Assembly (NCBI GenBank): GCA_951799405.1
Contig: OX637334.1
Coordinates: 10,044,001-10,108,000, forward strand
From: Agapetus fuscipes
Taxonomy: Eukaryota > Arthropoda > Insecta > Trichoptera > Glossosomatidae
Direction: 5' to 3'
DNA: 64,000 nucleotides
In this document: positions 24,640 to 58,555 of the stretch, one piece after another
Position numbering within the stretch: position 1 is the first letter of the stretch
Layout: each line of letters starts with the position of its first letter
Made by a program: the position numbers and the translations under genes
Notes under the pieces: generated by a model
Told to the model about the DNA's origin: nothing
Database searches by the model: none
Seen by the model: the letters and a program-made list of their open reading frames with translations, nothing else

Positions 24640-27600
24640 TCATCTTGGGTACCGCAGGCGGTTCTCCCCCCTCGGACGCAGGCGCTCCGACCATGGTTGG
24701 AACCTGGAAACACCCGAGTCATTAGAGATCTGTCCTGCCTCATCCAACAGCTGACCCAACCCCAGGTCATTGTCAGACTCATCCTCCCAAGACACCTTTC
24801 TTCCGGAAATCTGATCATGATGTCTTTTCCAAATCTGATTTCCAGCTTTTACCAAGTAAATCCTGTTTCCCAATGTTTTAAATATAATGCATGGAACCCA
24901 CTTCCCTACATTTCTGAAATCCTTAGTCATTACCTTTTGTCCAATTCTGAATAGTCCTTTAATCTTTCTTCCCCTGTAATTCCTTTGTTGATTTTCCTGA
25001 TTTCTCTTTTTAAAAACACATACCTTTCTCCCCGTCTTTTTAAATGATTTCTCCCCAGGCACTACTGTATCAAAAATGGATCTTATTTTTCTACCTATCA
25101 TAAGCACGCTCGGCTCCATCCCTGTTGCTAATGATGGTGCATTTCTATGATCTACTAAAAATTCCAAAAGCTTATCTTCATAATCGTTAGGAAACATACC
25201 ATTTTTCATAATTTTTTTTAAAAAACTTTTTGTTGTTTTTACCGTATTCTCCGCCAAACCGTTTGACGCTGGGTGATTTACTGCTGAAGTTAAATGCTTA
25301 ATATTTAAATTTTTGCAAAACCTTTGAAAATCTACTGATGTAAATGCCGTCCCATTATCCGTTACAATGCAACTTGGAATACCTAACACTGAAAATATTC
25401 TCTTCAACTCTCTAATTGTATGCCTTGCATCAATTTTATCAACTTTTACAGCATCTATCCAATTTGATGCTGCGTCTACTACGACTAAAAAATATTTTCC
25501 TGCTAGCGGCCCGAAAAAATCTAAATGTATCCTTTTCCAAATATGTTGTTCTACCGGCCAACTTTTCAACTCGACTTTATCTGGAGATCCCATATTTCTT
25601 GCACATTGTGTACATTCTCTCACTGTTTTCTCAATTTCTGTATTCATCCCTAACCAAAAAAAATAATTTCTAGCCAAAGTTTTCGTTTTTACAATTCCCA
25701 TGTGAGATTTGTGAATAAACTTCAAAATATCTTCCCTTAATGCCAATGGTATTACCAATCTGTTTTCATAAAATAAACAATCATTTGATTCGCTTAACTT
25801 TTCTCTTAAAAACCACCATTTTACCAATCCATTTGTCATTTTGGATTTATTTGGCCACCCTGTTTTTAAATACTCTTTTATCTCACAAATGACCTTGTCA
25901 TTACGAGATGCTTCCTTGATGCATTCTACATTTAAATTTGTTTCTACTGCAATACAGTTTAAAAATTCTCCTTCAACATCCTCAATGTTTATCTCATTTA
26001 TGATCTCAATATTATCTTCCCCCTTGTTATCCGTACTACTCATTGGTAACTTCGACAAAAAATCTGCTTTATTATCCTTTGACGGAACAACTTTATGTTG
26101 AAGTGGTTTCACACCATCCCTCGATATTTGAAATCCCAAATATTCAACTTCTGTCAACCCAAATTCACATTTTTGTAAATTAACACTAAATCCACTACGT
26201 TCTAAACGCTTAATTACCTCTTCCGTTGCCTTCTCCAATTCTTGCAATGTATTCCCATAAATTAACAAATCATCCATAAATGCTATCGCATCCAACCCTT
26301 GAATTGCCGAATATAAAGCTCTGCTAAATATCGCTGGTGACGTCGTGAGACCAAAAGGAAGTACCTTGTACCTAAATAACCCAAATGGTGACGAAATCAC
26401 ACAAAGATTTCTCGACTCCTCCGACAACCTAATTTGAGAAAAAGCATTTCTCAAATCTAATTTTGCATAAAATTTTGCTCCATTTACTCTATTTATTAAA
26501 TCTTCTACTCTAGGTAACGGGTACTTTATTTTTTTTAACATTGGATTCAAAGTATTTTTAAAATCGGCACATATTCTGATTTCATCATTTTTTTTTTTCA
26601 CAATCACTATTGGACTTGCCATTTCACTAGTCTCTACTTTCTCAATAATACCTTCTTGTAACATGCGATCTATTTCTTTTTCTACCCTTATTCTCAAATT
26701 AAAAGGAATTGGCCTCGGGTTAACAAATTTTGCCTTAAAGTCTTTTATAACTTCTATCTCCGCTTCAAAATTTTTAAAAGTACCTGCTTTACTCTCAAAA
26801 ACAGCTGGATATTTTTTTCTCATACTAGAAAAAAAATCTGCATTATAATTCGTATTATTATTTCCTACTGAATAAATATTATCGCTAACATTGAATGAAT
26901 TTATTTTAAAAGTATTCAAAAAATTCCGACCTAATAAAGAAGACGACCCTTTATATACAACAATTATTTCTATGTACTCTTTACTTCCTTGATATTCTAC
27001 TCTCATGTACTTACGACCTTTTACTTGTAGTTGAGTACCATCATAGCTTGATAATTTCAAATCACAATGTTCTAACTTAATATTTGAAAAATGTTCATTA
27101 AATATGTGCCAAGGAATAATAGTCACCCCAGAACCCGTATCTAAAATCATTTTTAGATCTGTATCATTTACCTTTACGTTTAAAAAAATGGGACCATCCA
27201 TCTCATTAATGGCCATTATTGTATTTATTCTTCGAAACTTGCATTTATTTGCATAATGACCAGATTTGTTACATTTAAAGCATTTAATATTATTATTATT
27301 TTTATTTAAAAACTTGCATGCATTTTGTTTATGACCGAATTTACCACAGTTAAAGCATTTATAATTATTATTCCTATCACTTGAAATACTTGCATGTCTA
27401 AAAATAGATTTCTTACTATCATTTGAATTATTTCGCTTGATTTCAGAATTTCGCTGTCTATCCCTTGACTTCCGAGTTTCTGTGGAATCCCTCGAATTAC
27501 ACGAACTCATTAAATTTATACTTTCTGAATTGTTTTGACCACACAAATGTTCCATTGTTCTCGCTAATTCTACACATTCAGATAATTTTAATTCCATTGC

Positions 27601-28053
27601 TTTTAAAAATATTCTCTGCTTTATTTTGTTCTGTCTGATACCTATTAAAAATATATCCTTCAAATTTGCCTCCAATCTATTCTCAAATTTACAGTCTACC
27701 GCAATTTTTTTCAATCTAGCTATATAATCCTTAATTGACTCGGTTTCGAGCTGTTTACATGAATAAAATGACTCCCTATACTCAAATATATTTTTTTTTA
27801 CCCCACAATGACCCCCAATAATATCAATCAACTCCTCGAATTTTGCCTCCGAAATCTTTTTCGGAAAACATAGATCAGACACCGTCTGAAAAGTCTCCTT
27901 GGTGAGAGACGATAATAGAACAGCCCTTCTGCGTTCTTCAGTTAAAAACTTCTCATCATACAAAATGAGGACTTGGTCGAGCCGAAGTCTGAAGACATCC
28001 CAATCTCCAGTCCTATGGCAAAAAGGACTTAGACTCCTCAGTGTTCCCTCCAT
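24640..28053 (-). CDS. gag-pol: fused Gag-Pol polyprotein lacking RNase H
   Basis: I take the ATG at 28053 (MEGTLRSLSPF) rather than a TTG upstream; 1137 residues. Order: Gag with DYIARLKKIAVDCKF; two CCHC knuckles (CFNCGKFGHKQNAC, CFKCNKSGHYANKC); aspartic protease (LDTGSGVTIIPW); RT with KLDLRNAFSQIRL and FMDDLL; then directly from 'FQISRDGVKPLQHKV' to 'PSKDNKADFLSKLP', the sequence that normally follows RNase H; then integrase with its HHCC finger and catalytic LDFFGP, TDNGTAF and GLAENTVK. RT thumb, connection and RNase H are missing without breaking the frame. Gag and Pol share one frame, unlike the 51.9-kb element. A functional RNase H would have to come from another copy. Confidence 0.9.
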   Translation of the reverse strand: MEGTLRSLSPFCHRTGDWDVFRLRLDQVLILYDEKFLTEERRRAVLLSSLTKETFQTVSDLCFPKKISEAKFEELIDIIGGHCGVKKNIFEYRESFYSCKQLETESIKDYIARLKKIAVDCKFENRLEANLKDIFLIGIRQNKIKQRIFLKAMELKLSECVELARTMEHLCGQNNSESINLMSSCNSRDSTETRKSRDRQRNSEIKRNNSNDSKKSIFRHASISSDRNNNYKCFNCGKFGHKQNACKFLNKNNNNIKCFKCNKSGHYANKCKFRRINTIMAINEMDGPIFLNVKVNDTDLKMILDTGSGVTIIPWHIFNEHFSNIKLEHCDLKLSSYDGTQLQVKGRKYMRVEYQGSKEYIEIIVVYKGSSSLLGRNFLNTFKINSFNVSDNIYSVGNNNTNYNADFFSSMRKKYPAVFESKAGTFKNFEAEIEVIKDFKAKFVNPRPIPFNLRIRVEKEIDRMLQEGIIEKVETSEMASPIVIVKKKNDEIRICADFKNTLNPMLKKIKYPLPRVEDLINRVNGAKFYAKLDLRNAFSQIRLSEESRNLCVISSPFGLFRYKVLPFGLTTSPAIFSRALYSAIQGLDAIAFMDDLLIYGNTLQELEKATEEVIKRLERSGFSVNLQKCEFGLTEVEYLGFQISRDGVKPLQHKVVPSKDNKADFLSKLPMSSTDNKGEDNIEIINEINIEDVEGEFLNCIAVETNLNVECIKEASRNDKVICEIKEYLKTGWPNKSKMTNGLVKWWFLREKLSESNDCLFYENRLVIPLALREDILKFIHKSHMGIVKTKTLARNYFFWLGMNTEIEKTVRECTQCARNMGSPDKVELKSWPVEQHIWKRIHLDFFGPLAGKYFLVVVDAASNWIDAVKVDKIDARHTIRELKRIFSVLGIPSCIVTDNGTAFTSVDFQRFCKNLNIKHLTSAVNHPASNGLAENTVKTTKSFLKKIMKNGMFPNDYEDKLLEFLVDHRNAPSLATGMEPSVLMIGRKIRSIFDTVVPGEKSFKKTGRKVCVFKKRNQENQQRNYRGRKIKGLFRIGQKVMTKDFRNVGKWVPCIIFKTLGNRIYLVKAGNQIWKRHHDQISGRKVSWEDESDNDLGLGQLLDEAGQISNDSGVSRFQPWSERLRPRGENRLRYPR

Positions 28054-28509
28054 AGTCTGAAACGGCAGAAAGAAAGAAAACAAAAATCTTATCTGCTTCT
28101 GCGTCCGACAGTCCAGGAAACGCCTACGTGACCCTCAGAAAGTGGCTTCCACTCCCTGCAGCAGTCACCTCCAGGAAAATGACCCTCAAGGCTCCCAGCT
28201 CCTGCAGTACTCCCTGCAGCACTCCGCCCCAGTTGGATCCTCTCCTCTTGAAAAGAAAACCGCTGCAGTAACTCCCTGCAGCGATTCCTCTTGGCTCCGT
28301 GAGTTCTCTTCCTCTTGAAGAAAACCGCTCCTTCTCTTCAGACTTCTTCCAGTTCTCCCTGCAGCAACCTCGCCTCAGCTGGCTTCGTGATCCTCAGTCT
28401 TCAGATCCTTCTTCCTTCTCGAAGATTCCCACATGTTGCTCTTGCAACAATATTATTTTATTTCTTCCAAAAAAAATTTTTTTATCCCGTTTTATATGGT
28501 TCTTCTTTA

Positions 28510-43803: not shown

Positions 43804-46446
43804 CTAGCCGCCAACATCACAGATCAACCGCCATTTCTTTCTATCCTTGCATACTTCTTTCATTTCCTCCAGAGTCATAACCTTCTTCATACAAGCTCTT
43901 CTTTTATTATGACTCTGGATATTCCATTCATTCGCAATTTCGGATATTTGGTCCATCCATACCTTTCTCGGTCTTCCTCTACCACGACATCCATCTATTC
44001 TACCAACATATACTTTCTTCGTCAGTCTTTCCTCATTCATTCTCTCCATATGCCCAAACCATCTTAACAAACTTCTTTTAATCTTCACTTTCACACTTTC
44101 TTTTGCACCACATTTTTTTCTTACAAAATCATTCCTCACCCTGTCACTCCGTTTTTTCCCAATCATACTTCTTAGAAAGTCCATTTCAACAGTATGGACT
44201 TTACTAATTTCACTTTCATTCACCGTCCAGGCCTCGCTTCCATACATCAAGGTGGGTAAAAGTATGCCACTGCGTACCGCCAATCGAGCATTTTTAGAAA
44301 TGTTTTGATTTTTGGCGATACAAGCTGTGGCACCCAGTACACACCTGCCCTTCATTACTCTTCTTTCAAGTTCACCTGTCATTCTTCCATCTTTCTCAAA
44401 CTTACTTCCCAAGTATACAAACTCATTTACCACATCAACATTCATTCCGTTTATTCTAAATTCGTAGTTCGTATTTTCTTCATTTCTTTCAAAAATCAAA
44501 ACTTTCGTCTTACTTGCATTCAATTTCAAATAATTACCTAGCAGAGCTTCGTTCAATCTAGAGAGCATCGTTTGCAATTCTACTGCTGAGTCCGATACAA
44601 GAACAGCATCATCCGCATACAGTAGAACACTCACTTTGCTCTCTCCTATCATTAATCCACAATCATCAAGTCTAGCATCTCGAACACACTTGTCCATGAC
44701 TATGTTAAATAGCCATGGGCTCATCACACATCCTTGCCTTACACCCTTAAAAACTTCAAACCATTCACTATACTCATCATCAATACGAACACATGCTGTA
44801 CTATTTTCATAGTTTGCATGCACCGCACCTAGGAGAGCCCCATTCACTCCGTATGCTTTCAAAACATCCCATAACATACCTCTGTCTACTGAGTCAAAAG
44901 CCTTTTCCAAATCTACAAAGGCCGTGAACAGCTTCCGCCTCACCGACAATTGTTTTTCAACAAGTTGTCGTAGAGTAAAAATCTGATCAACACAGCCTCT
45001 ACCGGCCATAAAGCCGGACTGTATATCGGAAATCCTTTCACTAGTAGTCAGAATCACATTTTTTATAATCACCTTACAGAAGACTTTTCCTGGTATACTG
45101 AGTAGACTGATTGGTCTGAAGTTCTGACAGTCTTTTTTGTCCCCTTTACCTTTGTAAATGGGAACAATGACTGCCTTCCTCCAATCCATCGGTACTACTC
45201 CTGCATTCACACAAAGCTTACATAATTCGTACATCCAATCTATCACGCATTCACCTCCTGCTTTCAACATTTCACCATTTATTCCATCAAACCCAGCAGA
45301 CTTTCCATTCTTCAAACATTCAATAGATACTTTTATTTCTTCTTTCAAAATCCTAAATTCATTCTCTTCTGTCATTTTTCTAAACAAAATTCTTTCGCCC
45401 CGACCAAAAATCCCTTCAAAATATTCTTTCCATCTCTTACATACTTCATCCTTCTCCCATACCATCTCACCAACAGCACTTTTGATTCCTGGGGTGGTCA
45501 ATGCAGAATCTTTATTCCTATTGGCACCGACCCATCTCCAGAATTCCTTCCTACTGTCGGTGAAACTCCTGTTCATTTTTTCATCAATCTTTCTCTGTTC
45601 ATTCGCTTTGCTTTCATAAACTACATTCTTCGCCATTTGCTTGGCTATCTTATATTCATCTTCTAGCTTTCTATCATTCCTGTCGTTCAGCCACTTTTTG
45701 TAACATTCCTTCTTCACTTTCACAGCCTCTTTTACTTTAGCATTCCACCAGGCATCCCCTTTCAATCTTCCACCTTTCGTTTCTCCACATACTTTTCGAG
45801 CACATTCAATCATTCCTTCTTTCATAAACTTCCACATGCTTTCAATATCTTTTTCATTAACATTCTTTTCAAGTTCATTCACACTTAACTTTTTTTGTAT
45901 TTCTGATTTATACTTCACTTTCACATTTTCATCACTCAGACTTTCTACTTTTATTCTTGGCTTTCTTACTTTCTTCTTACGTTTCTTCTTTCTTACTTCT
46001 CCAATCATTATTTTAGCGCATAAGAGATAGTGGTCACTGCCTATTTCAGGCCCACGATAGACACGGCTATCTCTTACGGCTCCTCTCAGTCTTTCATCCA
46101 CACAGATGTAGTCAATGATTGTGCGACTTCCCACAATCTGCCTTGTGTACAGATGCACATCCTTATGTCGAAACCATGTGTTTGATGCAAAAAGGCTGTG
46201 CTCTGCACACAAAGCTATCAGGTGTCGCCCATTATCATTGACTACACCTCGTCCACTAGGACCAACAATTTTCACACACTCATCTCTTTGCGTACCTACC
46301 CATCCATTCATATCTCCCAAAATTATAATGTATTCATTCTTCTTGCTTTCGCGCACAACTGCATTCAACTCATTCCAGAATCTCATTTTCACGTCGATAC
46401 ACTCTGAATCTACAGGTGCATAACAGGCCACCAAGAAAATTTTCAT
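43804..46446 (-). CDS. LINE endonuclease-reverse transcriptase, N-truncated
   Basis: The frame is open from the junction at about 46504; the first internal ATG is 46446. Endonuclease C-terminal part: VACYAPVD, ILGDMNGWVG and GSDHYLL (catalytic Asp, Asn and His region); the N-terminal catalytic Asn/Glu are missing. RT: VIVPIYKGKGDKKDCQNFRP, FVDLEKAFDSVDR, GVRQGCVMSPWLFN and LLYADDAVLVS with YADD at about 44618. C-terminal domain: WFGHMERMNEERLTKKVY, RGRGRPRKVWMDQI, DRKKWRLICDVGG. The order fits RTE-type LINEs, often annotated 'craniofacial development protein 2-like'. No internal stops, so young, but it cannot move on its own without the endonuclease N-terminus. Confidence 0.85.
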   Translation of the reverse strand: MKIFLVACYAPVDSECIDVKMRFWNELNAVVRESKKNEYIIILGDMNGWVGTQRDECVKIVGPSGRGVVNDNGRHLIALCAEHSLFASNTWFRHKDVHLYTRQIVGSRTIIDYICVDERLRGAVRDSRVYRGPEIGSDHYLLCAKIMIGEVRKKKRKKKVRKPRIKVESLSDENVKVKYKSEIQKKLSVNELEKNVNEKDIESMWKFMKEGMIECARKVCGETKGGRLKGDAWWNAKVKEAVKVKKECYKKWLNDRNDRKLEDEYKIAKQMAKNVVYESKANEQRKIDEKMNRSFTDSRKEFWRWVGANRNKDSALTTPGIKSAVGEMVWEKDEVCKRWKEYFEGIFGRGERILFRKMTEENEFRILKEEIKVSIECLKNGKSAGFDGINGEMLKAGGECVIDWMYELCKLCVNAGVVPMDWRKAVIVPIYKGKGDKKDCQNFRPISLLSIPGKVFCKVIIKNVILTTSERISDIQSGFMAGRGCVDQIFTLRQLVEKQLSVRRKLFTAFVDLEKAFDSVDRGMLWDVLKAYGVNGALLGAVHANYENSTACVRIDDEYSEWFEVFKGVRQGCVMSPWLFNIVMDKCVRDARLDDCGLMIGESKVSVLLYADDAVLVSDSAVELQTMLSRLNEALLGNYLKLNASKTKVLIFERNEENTNYEFRINGMNVDVVNEFVYLGSKFEKDGRMTGELERRVMKGRCVLGATACIAKNQNISKNARLAVRSGILLPTLMYGSEAWTVNESEISKVHTVEMDFLRSMIGKKRSDRVRNDFVRKKCGAKESVKVKIKRSLLRWFGHMERMNEERLTKKVYVGRIDGCRGRGRPRKVWMDQISEIANEWNIQSHNKRRACMKKVMTLEEMKEVCKDRKKWRLICDVGG

Positions 46447-46504
46447 CCTGTTTGTTTTGAGTTTAACAGTCAAAACTCTTGGAGAGATTTTTGATTTGAA
46501 GCCA

Positions 46505-46806
46505 TCTTGAATTTTCAAGTTGGTGTAATGCCATGTTATGCATACTTAATACATGTCCAAAAAAGTTGATGTAGCCAAAATTTGGTATCTCTAGGTCTTA
46601 TACTTTGGAAAGTGACACACACACATACATACATACATACATACATACATACATACATACATACATACAGACGGACGTTTTTGAAAGATAGTGTTTTTTG
46701 GCATGTCCTGCACCAGGACAACTCATTTCCGTGAAAACCTCGAAATTTTTTTTTCACACCAAATCATAACTTTCTTTTATAGCCTTCGGCTATAGCAAGA
46801 AAGTAA
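46505..46806 (-). repeat. R4 repeat family, upstream part (split by LINE)
   Basis: Minus strand: a near-hairpin ctatagccgaaggctata, then gagttgtcctggtgcaggac (another hairpin), a tetranucleotide run, and ccaacttgaaaattcaagat up to the LINE junction. Same order as 62195-62460. Confidence 0.65.
46616..46668. repeat. (ACAT)n microsatellite
   Basis: About 13 tetranucleotide units (acacacatacatacatac...), part of the R4 repeat. The same position carries (GTAT)n at 47377-47398 and (GTGT)n at 62324-62342. Confidence 0.9.
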
Positions 46807-51905: not shown

Positions 51906-51921
51906 TATTTATGTAATATAC

Positions 51922-52196
51922 TGTAACGATTATGCTGTGTGAAGGAATATCCTCGAAGCGACTAGTGCTTCTAGACTAAGTACTTGTAACAATAATTATT
52001 ATTCGAGAACAAAATAGATAGATCCGTATAAGGAGAGCGGACAGTCGCTTGCGGGCATTCTGTAATTGAGCATCGACCTGTAAAGTACTAACTGAAACAT
52101 TGTAAAACAGAACAGAAAATAAATCTAAATAAATACAAATCCTCGTTTTTATTAAACAAGTTAGTTAAATCTATTGAACCTGCTAAAACCGGTACA
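51922..52196 (+). repeat. 5' LTR
   Basis: 275 bp, tgtaacgattatgctgtgtg to ctaaaaccggtaca. Includes gtataaggagagcgg (TATA-like, about 52036) and aataaatctaaataaat near the 3' end, which could serve as a polyadenylation signal. Same sequence as 58161-58435 as far as I can see. Confidence 0.93.
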
Positions 52197-52198
52197 AT

Positions 52199-52212
52199 TG
52201 GTGTCAGGTGGG
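52199..52212 (+). promoter_or_regulatory. primer-binding site, tRNA-Leu-like
   Basis: TGGTGTCAGGTGGG begins 2 bp after the LTR. TGGTGTCAG complements the CTGACACCA end of tRNA-Leu; the match beyond is partial. Confidence 0.7.
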
Positions 52213-52621
52213 AATAGAATTTAAATAAAATAAATAAAAGACGTTAAAGTGATAAGTTCTAAATTTAAAAAAAATCTGCATTGACAATGTTTTAAATATT
52301 AAAATATTTCGTGGACATTATAAAATTTATAATTATTGTGCGTAACTAACTACCTAGGTACCTACAACATTCGCTAATTCAAAATTATTATTGACTATTA
52401 TTATGTACCTACGCTGTTGTTACTGACAGCCGAAGTGATATTGTGTTTGAAGCAGGTAGGTACCTACCTACTTGTGCAAAACATTTTTGAAATAAAAATA
52501 AATTATTATTGTAAAAAGTGAAAGAATTACAAAAACCCATATAGTTCGGCATTCCATTTAAATTTTGTTATTTTCGTAAATAAATAAATAAAAAAAATAT
52601 ACAAATAAATTGAAGTGAAAC

Positions 52622-53926
52622 ATGGCCCAGTATATTGCCGTGTTGGACTTAAAAGTTTGTGAGCTAAAGGATGAGCTCATTGAACGCGACCTTGAAAGCA
52701 CTGGCAACAAAAATGCCTTGCAAGCGAGGCTTATGGAAGCCCTGGAGAAAAATGGAGAAGACCCGAACGCTTTTGTTTTATTATCGGGAAAGAATCGGGG
52801 CTTTGACGAGCTTAATCTCAGCATCATCGAGAGCTCCAAAAGTTTGAAGGAAGAGATGGCCGAGAGCTCCAAAAGTTTAAAGGAAGAGATGGCCGACAAT
52901 TCCAGAACCCTGGAAGAGAAGCTGGGGACCCTTAAGAATGAGATGGCTGACAACTCTAAAGCCCTTGAGGCTCTGGCAGAGAATATGGCGGAGAGCAACA
53001 AAAATCTCAAGGAGGAACTGAGTGGTTTGATGGCGCAGAACTTAACCAGTCTCGAAGAAAAGCTCGATGAAAAGATTTCTGAAGGTTCCCGAGCGGTGAT
53101 GGAAATTGAGGCACGTGTTGCAAGCCTTGAAAACCGTCTTCGTGCCGCCGTGAGTAGTGAAAAGCCTTTGCCGGATGATAAAACACGGCATGAACTTAAC
53201 GAAGACACCGTGACTGGTAAAACCATTCCTAAAAAACATGATTTACCAACTTTCGATGGGAAGTCATCCTGGGAAGGGTACATGACCCTATTCGAAACGG
53301 CAGCTATGTTGGGAAATTGGTCTCCACAGAGCAAGGCGTCCATGCTCAGCCTGTCACTTAGAGGAGATGCTCTGCGTGTGCTGCAGTCCATTCCTTTGGA
53401 AAACCGAGGGAATTATTTGGAGCTGAAGCAGCGCCTAGACATGCGCTTTGGGCACAAGTACCTGGAACAACTTTACAAATCCCAGCTAAATACCAGAGTA
53501 CAGACAGCAAAGGAAAGTCTTCAAGAATTCGAGATGGACATTGCCCGACTAGTGAGAGATGCATACCCCTCAGCCCCTGACGACATTTATGAGAGTCTGG
53601 CCGTGGACAAATTCCTCAATGGACTGCATGAATGGGAGACACAACAAGCGGTGAAACTGGCCCACCCAAAGACACTTAATGAGGCTTTAACCCAAGCATT
53701 GGAGTTTGAGGCCATCAAACAATCGATCAGAGGACATGTCAAAGTACGCGGTGTTGATGCAGAAGAAGCCAAGCCACCTTCGATTGAAGAACTAATCGAA
53801 AAGGTGTTGGAACGGCTAAGGCCCAGGAGGCGAGGAATACGCTGCTGGAACTGCGGCCAACTGGGTCATCTGAGCATCAAATGTCCAAAACCCCAGAAAC
53901 CCAAACCACAAGTCTCGGAAAACTAG
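52622..53926 (+). CDS. gag: Gag with SAP-like domain, coiled coil and CCHC knuckle
   Basis: 434 residues from ATG 52622. Residues 4-45 fit a SAP motif (LKDELIERDLESTGNK then LQARLMEAL), a fold usually associated with DNA or chromatin binding. Residues about 63-150 are Glu/Lys/Ser-rich heptads built from an 11-residue repeat (ESSKSLKEEMA), with two copies almost identical at DNA level (33 bp). Residues about 205-370 form a retrotransposon capsid-like region (KKHDLPTFDGKSSWEGY, ESLQEFEMDIARLVRDAYP). Residues 408-421 are a CCHC knuckle (CWNCGQLGHLSIKC). Leader from the primer site to ATG is about 420 bp. Ends 46 bp inside the pol frame. Confidence 0.9.
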   Translation: MAQYIAVLDLKVCELKDELIERDLESTGNKNALQARLMEALEKNGEDPNAFVLLSGKNRGFDELNLSIIESSKSLKEEMAESSKSLKEEMADNSRTLEEKLGTLKNEMADNSKALEALAENMAESNKNLKEELSGLMAQNLTSLEEKLDEKISEGSRAVMEIEARVASLENRLRAAVSSEKPLPDDKTRHELNEDTVTGKTIPKKHDLPTFDGKSSWEGYMTLFETAAMLGNWSPQSKASMLSLSLRGDALRVLQSIPLENRGNYLELKQRLDMRFGHKYLEQLYKSQLNTRVQTAKESLQEFEMDIARLVRDAYPSAPDDIYESLAVDKFLNGLHEWETQQAVKLAHPKTLNEALTQALEFEAIKQSIRGHVKVRGVDAEEAKPPSIEELIEKVLERLRPRRRGIRCWNCGQLGHLSIKCPKPQKPKPQVSEN

Positions 53927-56900
53927 AAAGGGTTAATGGGAAGGGGCAACTGTTGACCCGCGTTGGAGAGGCCCGGAAATCTGCTGCTATTGTCGCAACC
54001 TTGAAAGGTCGAGCTAGCAGCATCTTCATTAATGGCATGATAGATGGAAGGAACTGTGAACTACTGGTGGACACAGGAGCAACCAGGACGATTGTAAGAC
54101 CAGACATAGCGACAAAGCAGAAGAAAATTTTACCAACAAGATGGTCTTTGCGTACAGCAACGGGAGAGTCAGCTCGAGTACACGGGGAGACGCTGGCAAC
54201 CTTCCAGATTGGCAACATGACTATCGAACATCGAACCTTGGTGGCCAATATTGAAGAAGAAGTTATTATTGGGATGGATATGCTCACTAGACTTGGATGT
54301 AATCTGGACCTGAAGAAAGGGACCATAATTATTGGGAACGAAGAGATCATTATCCAAAAACGCAATGACATGGCCACTCGAGTAGTCGTAGCAGAGACTA
54401 CAAAATTGAAAAAAAACTCCGAGATGATAGTACCAGCACGTTTTGACTCCAAGTGTGCAGAAGGACAGATTATTATGATGGAACCCGAGAAGATTGGCAA
54501 GATTGCAAAAGGAGTTCTAGTTGCCAGCGCAGTAATCCGCACACAAAAGATAGTCCCAATACGGGTGATGAACATAAATGATTATCCTATTACAATACAC
54601 GAAGGCAGCACCCTGGGTAATTGCGTGATAATGACGTCCATTGTACGGAACGTGAAGAGTTCGAGCTACCAGGAAGGAAAGTTGCCTGGCCGATTAGATG
54701 AACTCACTCAAAGAGCTTGCCGAGAGCTTCCCGAAGAGGATGAATGGAAAGTAAAAAGTCTTCTTTGCCGATATCAAGACATCTTTGAGGATTCCAACGG
54801 TCCGTTGGGAAGAACCAAAATTGTACGACACTGCATTGACACTGGAGACTCAAGGCCAATTCGACAGGCACCACGAAGGCTACCCTTTGCCAAGCGCGAG
54901 GAAGCAGACACAATTATCCAAGACATGCAACGGGACGGCATCATCGAACCATCAAACAGCCCGTGGACATCACCAGTTGTGTTAGTCAAAAAAAAAGATG
55001 GAACGACAAGGTTTTGCGTTGACTATCGTCAGCTCAATGATGTCACAAAGAAAGACAGCTACCCTTTGCCCAGAATAGACGACACTTTGGACACTTTGAC
55101 AGGATGTGAGATCTTCTCAACTCTCGATTTGAAGAGTGGATATTGGCAGGTGGAATTAAATCCAAAGGATAAAGAGAAAACTGCCTTTTCGACAGGTTCT
55201 GGACTCTGGCAATTTACCGTTATGCCATTTGGGCTGTGCAATGCACCTGCTACGTTTGAACGCCTGATGGAAAGCGTGCTACGTGGATTATCCTGGGAAA
55301 AATGTCTAGTATATTTGGATGACATCATTATTCTTGGAAAAACTTTTGATGACCAGCTGAAGAATCTGGAACAGGTATTTTTAAAATTGCAAGAAGCCGG
55401 GCTAAAACTCAATCCAAAGAAATGTAACCTTTTTCAAAAACAAGTGAGCTATCTGGGGCACATAGTATCGGGAAAAGGGGTAGCAGTTGACCCAGAAAAG
55501 ACTAGAGCTGTCAAAGACTGGCCAGTCCCGAGGGACAAGCATGAGGTCAGAAGCTTCCTGGGATTGTGTACCTACTACCGTCGATTTGTGCCAAGGTTTG
55601 CAGACATTTCTAAGCCATTGACTCGTCTCACCGAGGAGAAAAACAGCTTTGTATGGACAAATGACTGCCAACAGGCATTTGAAGAACTAAAAAAACGTCT
55701 TACTAGTGCGCCAATCTTGAGTTACCCCAGATATGAAGGGCAATTCATCCTAGACACAGATGCCAGTAATGTCGGTATTGGGGGAGTTCTTTCCCAAATT
55801 CAGGATGGCCAAGAGACAGTGCTTGGATACTTCAGCAAAGTTCTATCAAAACCAGAGCGTAACTATTGCGTCACTAGAAGAGAACTCCTGGCTGTGGTTA
55901 AATCAGTGGAACATTTCCGGAAGTACCTTTATGGAAGGAAATTCTTGTTGCGGACAGACCATGCCGCTCTGATGTGGTTGTTGAAATTCAAAAACCCTGA
56001 GGGTCAAGTAGCCAGGTGGATGGAGAGACTCCAAGAATATGATTTTGATGCTGTACATCGAGCAGGAATTATCCATCGTAATGCCGACGCTTTGTCAAGA
56101 AGGCCTTGTCACGATGACTGCAGACATTGCAGCAGAGTGGACACAAAGGCTGCTATAGTAAGCCGGACGACAGTCACGAGCGAGGATTGGAGAGAAGAAG
56201 AAATGAGGCAGGACCAAGAGAACGACCCAGAGCTGAAGTATCTAATACAATGGGTGCGAGAAAAACAAAGGCCAACCTGGGAACAAGTCGCCCCGTTATC
56301 ACCAACCGTCAAATCGTATTGGGCTCAGTGGAACTCCATACAACTGGAAAATGGGATACTTAAACGAGCAATTGAAAACGAAGACGGTACAGTGAAGAAA
56401 CTTCAGTTACTGGTACCAAAAGTGCGAGTCGCTGAAATCTTGAAGCTACTGCATGATGGGACGTCCGGTGGACACTTAGGAGTGAAAAAGACTCTGGAGA
56501 AACTGAGGGATCGGTTCTACTGGGTGAACTGCAAGGAAAATGTAAAAGATTGGTGCCGGAAATGCGTGACATGTGCCACAGCTAATGGACCCTTAAGAAA
56601 GAAGAGAGCCCCCATGCGCCAGTACAATGTTGGGAGCCCATTTGAAAGGATCGCTATTGACATCGCTGGTCCATACCCGACTACCGAAGATGGCAACAAG
56701 TACATTCTGGTGGCCATGGACTATTTCAGTAAATGGGTAGAAGCATACGCTTTACCCAACCAAGAAGCAGTTACGGTAGCAGAAGCGCTGGTGACTCAAC
56801 TGATAAGCCGATTTGGAGTACCACTGGAACTGCACTCTGATCAAGGACGGAACTTTGAGGCCACAGTGTTCCAGCAAATGTGCGACTTGCTGGGGATCAA

Positions 56901-58149
56901 GAAGACGAGAACCACAGCCCTGCATCCACAGTCTGATGGGATGGTAGAAAGGATGAACCGGACGGTTGGGAGATATTTGGCAAAGCATGTGTCAATTCAT
57001 CAGAGGGACTGGGACCGACATCTTCCCCTATTTTTTTTGGCTTATAGGTCCGCAGTTCACGAAACTACTGGCCAAACACCTGGGAGCATTATTTTTGGGC
57101 GAGAACTGCGACTGCCATGTGACCTGAAGTTTGGGTGCCGACCGACTGAGGATCTTGCAGGAGAGGACTACGTCTCGGATCTCCGCAGGCGACTAGATGG
57201 TGCCCACGAGCAAGTGCGAGCAAACATCCGTGAGGCAAGTGGTCGGATGAAAGAGCAATACGACATCCGGGCTGAGGACGGTGGATACCAAGCTGGGGAT
57301 TTAGTATGGCTGTTTGACCCAAAAAGGCGCCGAGGATACTCTCCAAAACTACAACGCTCATGGGATGGGCCGTATGAGGTCGTAAAACGCATCAATGACG
57401 TCATCTACAAGATAAGGAAAGAGCCAAGCGGAAAACCACGGATTGTCCATTTTAACCGCCTCACACCATATCTGGGAAACAACCACGATGACAGCCCGGA
57501 GCAAAAAGTACGAAGGTGTGCCGGATTTAAGGGAGCAGCCACTTTTGATGATTTTTGGGTTGAAGCACAAGATGGGCGAAAAATTCGGCATGACATTACC
57601 AAAGAAGTCCAACAGGATCTCTTTGCTGTACCATCTAACTACGCCATGGCTTGTTGCACGGCTGAAGACCTGGACATGTCTCGCGGGGTTGCTGGAGCAT
57701 TCCGTAATAAGTTCGGCAAGGTAACAGCACCGGTGGAGTCGGGGCCTATTGCAGGGAGAGCATTACGACTACCTGGTGAAGAGCGTCACGCATACTGCCT
57801 GGTGACAAGGATGACAGTTTCGGAGAAGACTGGTTATCAAGACCTGTGGGACAGCCTCGTGCATCTACGGGACCAACTGATGCAAGCCGGCATTTCCAAG
57901 CTGGCCGTACCAAAGATGGGTGGTGGACCAGCAGGACGAGACTGGAGGATCATCAGGAACATAATGGAAACTGTCTTCGAAAATACTGGCATCGAAATCC
58001 TGGTGTGCTGCGAGCAGCTGCAGAGAAGACACCCAGACGACCGGACGGTGGATTGTTACTTCTTCTCTAGATCCGGATGCAGTCGAGGGACATCTTGCAG
58101 ATACCGGCATGTTCCAGGTTCAAGACTGTTCCGGGACGGAACAGCCTAA
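53881..58149 (+). CDS. pol: Pol with C-terminal macro domain and CCCH zinc finger
   Basis: 1422 residues counted from ATG 53881; in life probably made by -1 shift from gag. Protease D64-T-G-A; RT about 326-510 with YLDD at 478-481; RNase H from D625/D627 (LDTDASNVGIGG); integrase HHCC about 857-900, catalytic D927, D987, E1023 (D-x35-E); GPY/F module WDGPYEVV near 1161. After this comes an extra segment. Residues about 1238-1376 (QQDLFAVPSNYAMACCTAED, RGVAGAF, YCLVT, KMGGGPAGRDW, TGIEILVC) follow the TARG1/OARD1-type macro-domain order. Residues 1392-1410 are a C-x7-C-x5-C-x3-H finger. By eye, R1310 and A1351 occupy the positions of the TARG1 catalytic Lys and Asp, so binding is likelier than hydrolysis. 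The assignment rests on motif reading, not a profile search. Confidence 0.88.
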   Translation: MSKTPETQTTSLGKLERVNGKGQLLTRVGEARKSAAIVATLKGRASSIFINGMIDGRNCELLVDTGATRTIVRPDIATKQKKILPTRWSLRTATGESARVHGETLATFQIGNMTIEHRTLVANIEEEVIIGMDMLTRLGCNLDLKKGTIIIGNEEIIIQKRNDMATRVVVAETTKLKKNSEMIVPARFDSKCAEGQIIMMEPEKIGKIAKGVLVASAVIRTQKIVPIRVMNINDYPITIHEGSTLGNCVIMTSIVRNVKSSSYQEGKLPGRLDELTQRACRELPEEDEWKVKSLLCRYQDIFEDSNGPLGRTKIVRHCIDTGDSRPIRQAPRRLPFAKREEADTIIQDMQRDGIIEPSNSPWTSPVVLVKKKDGTTRFCVDYRQLNDVTKKDSYPLPRIDDTLDTLTGCEIFSTLDLKSGYWQVELNPKDKEKTAFSTGSGLWQFTVMPFGLCNAPATFERLMESVLRGLSWEKCLVYLDDIIILGKTFDDQLKNLEQVFLKLQEAGLKLNPKKCNLFQKQVSYLGHIVSGKGVAVDPEKTRAVKDWPVPRDKHEVRSFLGLCTYYRRFVPRFADISKPLTRLTEEKNSFVWTNDCQQAFEELKKRLTSAPILSYPRYEGQFILDTDASNVGIGGVLSQIQDGQETVLGYFSKVLSKPERNYCVTRRELLAVVKSVEHFRKYLYGRKFLLRTDHAALMWLLKFKNPEGQVARWMERLQEYDFDAVHRAGIIHRNADALSRRPCHDDCRHCSRVDTKAAIVSRTTVTSEDWREEEMRQDQENDPELKYLIQWVREKQRPTWEQVAPLSPTVKSYWAQWNSIQLENGILKRAIENEDGTVKKLQLLVPKVRVAEILKLLHDGTSGGHLGVKKTLEKLRDRFYWVNCKENVKDWCRKCVTCATANGPLRKKRAPMRQYNVGSPFERIAIDIAGPYPTTEDGNKYILVAMDYFSKWVEAYALPNQEAVTVAEALVTQLISRFGVPLELHSDQGRNFEATVFQQMCDLLGIKKTRTTALHPQSDGMVERMNRTVGRYLAKHVSIHQRDWDRHLPLFFLAYRSAVHETTGQTPGSIIFGRELRLPCDLKFGCRPTEDLAGEDYVSDLRRRLDGAHEQVRANIREASGRMKEQYDIRAEDGGYQAGDLVWLFDPKRRRGYSPKLQRSWDGPYEVVKRINDVIYKIRKEPSGKPRIVHFNRLTPYLGNNHDDSPEQKVRRCAGFKGAATFDDFWVEAQDGRKIRHDITKEVQQDLFAVPSNYAMACCTAEDLDMSRGVAGAFRNKFGKVTAPVESGPIAGRALRLPGEERHAYCLVTRMTVSEKTGYQDLWDSLVHLRDQLMQAGISKLAVPKMGGGPAGRDWRIIRNIMETVFENTGIEILVCCEQLQRRHPDDRTVDCYFFSRSGCSRGTSCRYRHVPGSRLFRDGTA
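53905..53926 (+). promoter_or_regulatory. candidate -1 frameshift region
   Basis: The last gag codons, tcg gaa aac tag, offer GGAAAAC just before the gag stop. This is close to but not a perfect X-XXY-YYZ slippery heptamer. A -1 slip here enters the open pol frame at once. I did not find a convincing downstream pseudoknot by eye. Confidence 0.4.
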
Positions 58150-58160
58150 GGAAGGGGCAA
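58148..58160 (+). promoter_or_regulatory. polypurine tract
   Basis: aaggaaggggcaa lies directly before the 3' LTR and overlaps the pol stop codon. Confidence 0.75.
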
Positions 58161-58435
58161 TGTAACGATTATGCTGTGTGAAGGAATATCCTCGAAGCGA
58201 CTAGTGCTTCTAGACTAAGTACTTGTAACAATAATTATTATTCGAGAACAAAATAGATAGATCCGTATAAGGAGAGCGGACAGTCGCTTGCGGGCATTCT
58301 GTAATTGAGCATCGACCTGTAAAGTACTAACTGAAACATTGTAAAACAGAACAGAAAATAAATCTAAATAAATACAAATCCTCGTTTTTATTAAACAAGT
58401 TAGTTAAATCTATTGAACCTGCTAAAACCGGTACA
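58161..58435 (+). repeat. 3' LTR
   Basis: 275 bp ending ctaaaaccggtaca, then the ATAC target duplication. Confidence 0.93.
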
Positions 58436-58555
58436 ATACTTTTACAACTTAGATTATAAATTAATATGGATATGAGACAAAAAAAGTAAAGATAGAAAAT
58501 AGCATAACCACAGGATAAGAAAATATGAAAAAAGGTCGATAGTTCATAAGCCAGT

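What the first reader, a model, noticed from the sequence alone, without database searches (positions are those of the whole stretch)
57592..58146. Macro domain plus CCCH zinc finger at the C-terminus of a gypsy Pol
Seen: the pol frame continues about 220 residues past the GPY/F module. The segment has the order of a TARG1/OARD1-type macro domain (DLFAVPSNYA, CCTAEDLDMSRGVAGAF, YCLVT, PKMGGGPAGRDW, EILVC), then C1392-x7-C1400-x5-C1406-x3-H1410. Known: macro domains bind ADP-ribose and occur in host enzymes and in some RNA-virus proteins, where they counter host ADP-ribosylation; CCCH fingers usually bind RNA. Inference: the element captured a host module that could counter ADP-ribosyl-based (PARP-like) restriction or help packaging. 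R1310 and A1351 in place of the TARG1 catalytic Lys and Asp suggest a reader, not an eraser. I do not know of this domain pair in a described gypsy lineage, though I cannot search.
Basis: partly seen in the sequence, partly recalled or inferred. Interest (0 to 1): 0.88.

Follow-up and report, generated by a model that had tools for sequence, protein, structure and literature searches.

The report
Gypsy retrotransposon carrying captured TARG1 domain

The parts
51918..51921 (.). target-site duplication ATAC (repeated at 58436-58439)
   Evidence: read from sequence
51922..52196 (+). 5' LTR (TGT...ACA); exact 277-nt repeat 51922-52198 = 58161-58437
   Evidence: boundaries read
52199..52212 (+). 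primer-binding site TGGTGTCAGGTGGG, tRNA-Leu-like (tRNA assignment recalled)
52619..53926 (+). Gag frame: N-terminal SAP domain and CCHC knuckle
53788..58149 (+). Pol frame, 1453 codons, in the -1 frame relative to gag
54028..54291 (+). aspartyl protease (PF13975, E 3.3e-12)
54985..55467 (+). reverse transcriptase (PF00078; matched in two pieces because the frame was cut for the scan)
55654..56040 (+). RNase H (PF17919/PF17917)
56413..56922 (+). integrase H2C2 and catalytic core (PF17921, PF00665)
57367..57468 (+). integrase C-terminal module (PF22938)
57607..58005 (+). TARG1-type macro domain
57808..57810 (+). Arg codon at the position of TARG1 catalytic Lys84
57931..57933 (+). Ala codon at the position of TARG1 catalytic Asp125
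58054..58110 (+). CCCH zinc finger, C-x7-C-x5-C-x3-H
58161..58435 (+). 3' LTR; only 11 bases lie between the pol stop and this LTR, so there is no room for env there

Best explanation
Shown: a Ty3/gypsy lineage carries a TARG1-type macro domain plus a CCCH finger at the C-terminus of Pol. Inferred: it was captured from a cellular TARG1 gene, and the ancestor had the intact Lys/Asp dyad, since relatives still do. Shown by tree: the dyad-less rows form one supported clade that holds the window element. Shown: the macro domain stayed under purifying selection and kept the aspartate and glycines at positions that in TARG1 line the ADP-ribose site (site assignment recalled), while changing faster than RNase H and integrase. 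Shown: a pol-less derivative keeps Gag plus macro-CCCH. Inferred mechanism: the released or Gag-joined macro-CCCH protein is part of the Gag-RNA particle; the CCCH finger holds the element's RNA, and the macro domain recognises an ADP-ribosyl mark or a host ADP-ribosylation factor there, masking or sequestering it instead of removing it. This would protect the RNA, cDNA or capsid, or favour packaging.
For: TARG1 match by sequence and fold. Relatives P0004, P0005 (Acanthoscelides obtectus, a beetle) and P0006 (nearly full Pol, 1364 aa) keep Lys and Asp; the window element, P0002, P0003 and the second subfamily lost both. P0004 matches TARG1 at E 2.3e-31. Tree of 15 rows: dyad-less clade 95/93, with P0006 as sister 98/94. 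Asp20, Gly43, Pro118, Gly121 and Gly123 of TARG1 are kept in the window element. Rates, window against second subfamily: RNase H 90%, integrase core 84%, macro 49%, CCCH 44% identical; dN 0.08, 0.10, 0.47, 0.44. Window against P0006: RT 86%, integrase core 83%, macro 48%. Second subfamily against a divergent copy: macro dN 0.175, dS 0.98. Gag-coil-macro-CCCH frames; the junction query gave 150 scored matches out of 953 first-look candidates, 142 of 150 with frames of at least 600 aa (my count). Macro dN/dS between pol-less copies 0.08-0.19 for pairs with dS above 0.08. Host frames with the dyad that look like TARG1 exons and PARP-domain matches (5 on two contigs) suggest that the host has the machinery. 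Precedent that ADP-ribosylation restrains retroelements: SIRT6 represses LINE-1 by mono-ADP-ribosylating KAP1 (passage in the review PMC4695847).
Against: No binding, catalysis, expression or particle data. A dyad-less macrodomain (SCO6735) is a hydrolase (PMC9411070), so 'reader' may be wrong. Ser35, Cys122 and Leu124 of TARG1 are changed in the window element, and Asp20 is Ser in the RNase H-integrase class. The AlphaFold model leaves the CCCH at pLDDT under 50 and the second pocket loop at 64; Pfam puts the finger under its cut-off and reports no Macro match for the pol-less frame L046 or for P0006. The 45-codon linker before the macro domain changes as fast as the macro domain, so speed is not special to it. 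For the 35-codon CCCH tail dN equals or exceeds dS in 3 of the 6 pairs tested (L046/L047 0.067 against 0.038, L037/L047 0.053 against 0.038, L046/L044 0.040 against 0.038; few changes): no constraint on the finger is shown in pol-less copies. One common pol-less type has a macro region 99.6% identical over 704 nt to an autonomous copy while gag is about 92% and LTRs 95%: recombination could account for part of the constraint seen. The host PARP matches are few (5, two of them with a stop inside), so a broad PARP-type restriction system is not evident.
Confidence: 0.48

Rival explanations
1. The domain is still an enzyme: an ADP-ribosyl hydrolase using another chemistry, removing ADP-ribose from element RNA ends, cDNA or Gag.
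For: Dyad-containing relatives exist. SCO6735 lacks the Lys84 and Asp125 equivalents but hydrolyses dT-ADP-ribose and needs Gln85 (passages). TARG1 acts on nucleic-acid ends (passages of PMC7050489).
Against: Position 84 is Arg, Pro or Gly in the dyad-less rows and position 125 is Ala in each of them: no single replacement residue is conserved at 84, unlike a kept active site.
Confidence: 0.18
2. Integration-targeting module: the macro domain reads ADP-ribosylated chromatin (for example automodified PARP1 at breaks) and steers the integration complex, as chromodomains are thought to do in chromoviruses.
For: It sits after the integrase C-terminal module, where chromodomains sit in chromoviruses (start of the abstract of PMC3605345 in the listing). 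In 8 of 8 copies looked at, the 4 bases next to the element end fit RTAY.
Against: The amplified derivative has no integrase but keeps macro-CCCH joined to Gag. A short RTAY preference can come from integrase itself. A Gag-borne tether remains possible.
Confidence: 0.15
3. The module is carried passively: a neutral C-terminal tail, or retained because the DNA holds cis signals (packaging, polypurine tract).
For: Copies are numerous and young, so intact frames alone prove little; the module lies next to the purine-rich stretch and 3' LTR. dN is not below dS in the CCCH tail for 3 of 6 pairs.
Against: Between subfamilies it kept an alignable fold and the zinc ligands at 44-49% identity, and macro dN/dS is 0.08-0.28 for all printed pairs with dS above 0.08: constraint at protein level on the macro part.
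Confidence: 0.07
4. Protein-binding decoy or scaffold: the domain no longer recognises ADP-ribose and instead contacts a fast-evolving host restriction factor or Gag.
For: Fast protein change against slowly changing Pol enzymes and loss of the dyad.
Against: Pocket glycines and Asp20 are kept.
Confidence: 0.12

Closest known systems
TARG1/OARD1/C6orf130 (ALC1-like macrodomain class)
   Different: Lacks Lys84 and Asp125; fused to Pol and a CCCH finger.
Macro-domain ORFs of teleost epsilon-like endogenous retroviruses (Basta et al. 2009, as cited in PMC4977317; one passage read; my look-up of the original by a recalled DOI found nothing held)
   Same: A retroelement with a macro domain.
   Different: Described as additional open reading frames in vertebrate retrovirus-like sequences, not as a Pol extension with CCCH in gypsy; sequences not compared.
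Phalaenopsis gypsy elements with an AlkB m6A demethylase (PMC9289625; abstract and section 12 read)
   Same: Ty3/gypsy with a captured eraser of a nucleic-acid mark.
   Different: Additional ORF, plant host, methyl mark, active enzyme; section 12 says 15 extra domains were found in angiosperm elements and names no macro domain.
DNMT-bearing retrotransposons (PMC5890265; abstract and outline read)
   Same: Recurrent, independent capture of a host modification enzyme.
   Different: Writer of DNA methylation; dinoflagellates and charophytes.
Alphavirus and other RNA-virus macrodomains (PDB rows)
   Same: A genetic parasite with a macro fold.
TR-GAG-type non-autonomous LTR elements (search listing only; definition recalled)
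   Same: LTRs and gag kept, pol missing.
   Different: Here a macro-CCCH module and a coiled coil are kept in frame with Gag.

Membership tests
TARG1/OARD1 macrodomain | Sequence and fold relation to TARG1 | tested here: met
TARG1/OARD1 macrodomain | Catalytic Lys84 | tested here: not met
   Arg in the window element; Arg, Pro or Gly in the dyad-less rows
TARG1/OARD1 macrodomain | Catalytic Asp125 | tested here: not met
   Ala. Hence: TARG1-derived domain, not a canonical TARG1 hydrolase
TARG1/OARD1 macrodomain | ADP-ribose binding and hydrolysis | not testable with these tools
   needs the purified domain
CCCH zinc finger | Cys-Cys-Cys-His spacing near C-x8-C-x5-C-x3-H | tested here: met
   C-x7-C-x5-C-x3-H; the three Cys are invariant in the 12 sequences of A1, the His in 11 of 12 (L011 lacks it)
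CCCH zinc finger | Pfam gathering score | tested here: not met
   19.1 against 20.5 bits for PF00642, 24 against 31 for PF15663; the spacing and ligand conservation carry the assignment
CCCH zinc finger | RNA binding | not testable with these tools
   none
Ty3/gypsy LTR retrotransposon | LTRs, short target duplication, PBS | tested here: met
Ty3/gypsy LTR retrotransposon | Order PR-RT-RNaseH-IN | tested here: met
Ty3/gypsy LTR retrotransposon | Named clade within Ty3/gypsy | not tested
   no reference set of gypsy clades at hand
Fish epsilon-like ERVs with macro ORF | Homology of the macro domain or element | not tested
   original paper and sequences not at hand
TR-GAG-type pol-less derivative (L057, L046) | LTRs plus gag, no pol | tested here: met
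   L057: 478-bp terminal repeat at 99.6%, about 3.96 kb; Gag-coil-macro-CCCH frame; no PR, RT, RNase H or IN family among the 12 Pfam rows of L046

The most novel reading that the evidence does not exclude
Gypsy retrotransposons have taken up the TARG1 ADP-ribosylhydrolase at least twice, at two places in Pol. One lineage turned it into a catalytically dead, fast-evolving ADP-ribose reader tied to an RNA-binding finger that works in the Gag particle, so useful that pol-less parasites of the element keep only Gag and this module. This would point to an ADP-ribosyl-based arm of defence against retroelements in this host group.
Probability: 0.3. Interest if true: 0.88.

Novelty: new variant of a known kind. 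Interest (0 to 1): 0.74.

Why it matters
LTR retrotransposons with captured host modification enzymes are a known kind; in the papers I could see, an ADP-ribose domain in a gypsy element was not among them. Two positions in two families, loss of the catalytic dyad in one clade, fast change under constraint, and retention in pol-less Gag derivatives together make ADP-ribosylation a testable factor in the contest between retroelements and their hosts; in mammals SIRT6 already represses LINE-1 through mono-ADP-ribosylation of KAP1 (review passage). The dyad-intact and dyad-less relatives form a natural comparison of eraser and non-eraser.

Tried and rejected
Pfam Macro alone would have missed the domain (13.1 bits); at E up to 0.5 it is not reported for P0006 or L046 and gives E 0.24 for P0007. 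The viral-contig scan with A1 found 18 pattern matches and no relative. A splice origin of the Gag-macro and PR-macro joints (both lie just upstream of the macro linker) was considered; I saw no clear acceptor at the joint by eye and did not pursue it. The source of the coiled coil was not found: against the loci then held and the window only short matches to L006, L034 and L045. Host order: gloverin gave 0 of 1 genomes, but its controls rang in 0 of 14, so it says nothing; PF07294 did not complete. The contig layout hints at a moth or butterfly, but that is only a guess. RT or integrase relatives without the macro module were not sought, so the point of capture on the gypsy tree is open. YN00 failed or NG86 returned -1 for saturated pairs; those ratios are not used. 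Dropped rows: L016 and L017 (stops) were shown with X and left out of the tree; L011 (no CCCH His) stood in A1 but not in A2 or the tree; L042 and L043 were fetched but not put into the dN/dS set, and pairs with dS of 0.08 or less were not printed. The four reviews were checked by passages: their retrotransposon mentions concern SIRT6 and LINE-1 or reference lists, not an element-borne macro domain. The one eLife paper opened mentions the terms only in its reference list.

Full report
WHAT IS THERE. The window holds a Ty3/gypsy element at 51922-58435. Its LTRs (TGT...ACA) are part of a 277-nt exact repeat, flanked by ATAC on both sides, so the insertion is recent. A Gag frame (52619-53926) with SAP and CCHC domains is followed in the -1 frame by a Pol frame of 1453 codons with protease, RT, RNase H and integrase. 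Pol continues about 220 residues beyond the integrase C-terminal module and stops 11 bases before the 3' LTR, so there is no room for env there.

COPIES AND RELATIVES. In the host genome (618 Mb, unnamed) 150 of 1108 first-look candidates were scored: 55 lie at 83-100% identity, 95 at 52-53% (my count). A query from the second subfamily (P0003) gave 150 scored of 1416 candidates, all 150 at 99%, so that subfamily is large and young. The protein database (5.8 billion) gave 4 relatives among 96 candidates for the segment and 1 nearly full Pol among 783: P0002, P0003, P0004, P0005 (Acanthoscelides obtectus, a beetle) and P0006. P0004, P0005 and P0006 keep Lys and Asp; P0002 and P0003 lack both. 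P0002 joins protease directly to macro-CCCH. In the macro tree the dyad-less rows form one clade (95/93) next to P0006 (98/94): one loss is the simplest history. The tree is unrooted and has 15 rows; P0005 and the host row are long branches.

RATE AND CONSTRAINT. Window against the second subfamily: RNase H 90%, integrase core 84%, integrase C-terminus 76%, linker 50%, macro 49%, CCCH 44% identity. Window against P0006: RT 86%, RNase H 87%, integrase core 83%, macro 48%, CCCH 57%. Second subfamily against a divergent copy: macro dN 0.175, dS 0.98; integrase core dN 0.047, dS 1.94; linker dN 0.46, dS 1.65. So the macro domain is constrained but changes about four to six times faster in dN than RNase H and integrase core; the linker is as fast or faster. 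Host contact is an inference from this.

POL-LESS DERIVATIVES. Some matches lie in frames of about 790 aa that join Gag (SAP, capsid region, CCHC), a coiled coil of about 120 residues and macro-CCCH, without protease, RT or integrase. A 72-aa junction query scored 150 of 953 candidates, each over its whole length at 99-100%; 142 of the 150 have open frames of at least 600 aa (my count). One copy (L057) has a 478-bp terminal repeat at 99.6% and is about 3.96 kb long; its LTRs are 95% and its gag about 92% identical to an autonomous copy of the second subfamily, but its macro-to-3' end stretch is 99.6% identical over 704 nt, which indicates recombination. Macro dN/dS between pol-less copies is 0.08-0.19 for pairs with dS above 0.08, for example 0.08 (L046/L040) and 0.12 (L046/L047). 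Recombination with autonomous copies may contribute to this. Against it: in the 35-codon CCCH tail dN is equal to or above dS in 3 of 6 pairs, with few changes. An element that lost every enzyme but kept macro-CCCH in frame with Gag argues that the module acts with Gag and RNA.

A SECOND PLACE. Searching the host genome with the TARG1 piece (150 of 993 candidates scored) found three frames that look like host TARG1 exons with the dyad (L021-L023, covering query residues 27 or 30 to 132; gene context not examined), and a different gypsy family with a TARG1-like domain (L024: E 1e-22 against TARG1), dyad kept in 9 of 9 loci L024-L032, no CCCH seen. It lies between RNase H and integrase in one frame in 7 of the 9; in L025 the RNase H end and in L032 the integrase is not in the same frame. 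A database record, P0007, has the same order. P0007's RT is 50% and integrase core 35% identical to the window's, and its macro domain falls in a separate clade (100/100) on the side of cellular TARG1. Two captures is the natural reading; one capture followed by a move cannot be excluded with an unrooted tree.

MECHANISM. Shown: identity of the domain, loss of the dyad, constraint and speed of the macro part, retention with Gag. Inferred: ADP-ribose recognition without canonical hydrolysis, RNA holding by the CCCH, action in the particle. TARG1 acts on proteins and on nucleic-acid ends (PMC7050489 passages), so the mark could be on RNA, cDNA or Gag. The host has 5 PARP-domain matches on two contigs, two with a stop inside; the controls of that search rang in 0 of 14. 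ADP-ribosylation as a brake on retroelements has a precedent in SIRT6, KAP1 and LINE-1 (review passage, PMC4695847).

PRIOR WORK. Eight of my 10 paper searches aimed at macro domains in retroelements (open-licence PMC, long listings capped); none of the papers listed described a macro-domain gypsy as far as titles, abstract starts, term counts and the passages I opened show. A review passage cites macro-domain ORFs in fish epsilon-like ERVs (PMC4977317). Captured m6A demethylase in orchid gypsy (PMC9289625) and DNMTs in retrotransposons (PMC5890265) define the known kind. I therefore file this as a new variant of a known kind, with high interest.

Noticed in passing
L024-L032 (own genome) and P0007: Another gypsy family carries a TARG1-like macro domain with Lys and Asp kept, between RNase H and integrase (in one frame in 7 of 9 loci).
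   Followed up: partly
L046, L047, L050, L051, L052, L057, L059, L060: Amplified pol-less LTR elements encode Gag-coiled coil-macro-CCCH in one frame; the origin of the coiled coil is unknown.
   Followed up: partly
L057:3119-3822 against L044:2347-3050: Macro-to-3' end stretch 99.6% identical between a pol-less and an autonomous copy while gag is about 92%: recent exchange of this module.
   Followed up: partly
window 52649-52747: SAP domain at the N-terminus of Gag (PF02037, E 6.1e-09), also in the pol-less derivative (E 2e-08): unusual for a gypsy Gag as far as I recall.
   Followed up: no
window 53917-53926: GGAAAAC directly before the gag stop, in the gag/pol overlap and also in L045: possible -1 frameshift site.
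   Followed up: no
ends of the window copy, L002-L005, L044, L057, L059: The 4 bases next to the element end fit RTAY in 8 of 8 copies looked at; both flanks were checked only for the window copy, L057 and L059.
   Followed up: partly
P0002: Protease joined directly to macro-CCCH with RT-RNaseH-IN missing; the joint lies near the place of the Gag-macro joint. Deletion or spliced form, not decided.
   Followed up: no
L007, L008: Close subfamily-1 copies (96-97% in DNA) whose match to the window element stops at 58172, so their LTRs seem to differ.
   Followed up: no
BFVD A0A8E0KJF2: The best viral structure match to the model is VP8 of Kadipiro virus (E 1.2e-12, 30% identity); whether it is TARG1-like was not tested.
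   Followed up: no
window 24640-28134 (-) and 43804-46545 (-): Two further retroelement frames: an LTR-type gag-pol frame of 1164 aa and an RT frame of 913 aa with an endonuclease match, non-LTR type.
   Followed up: no
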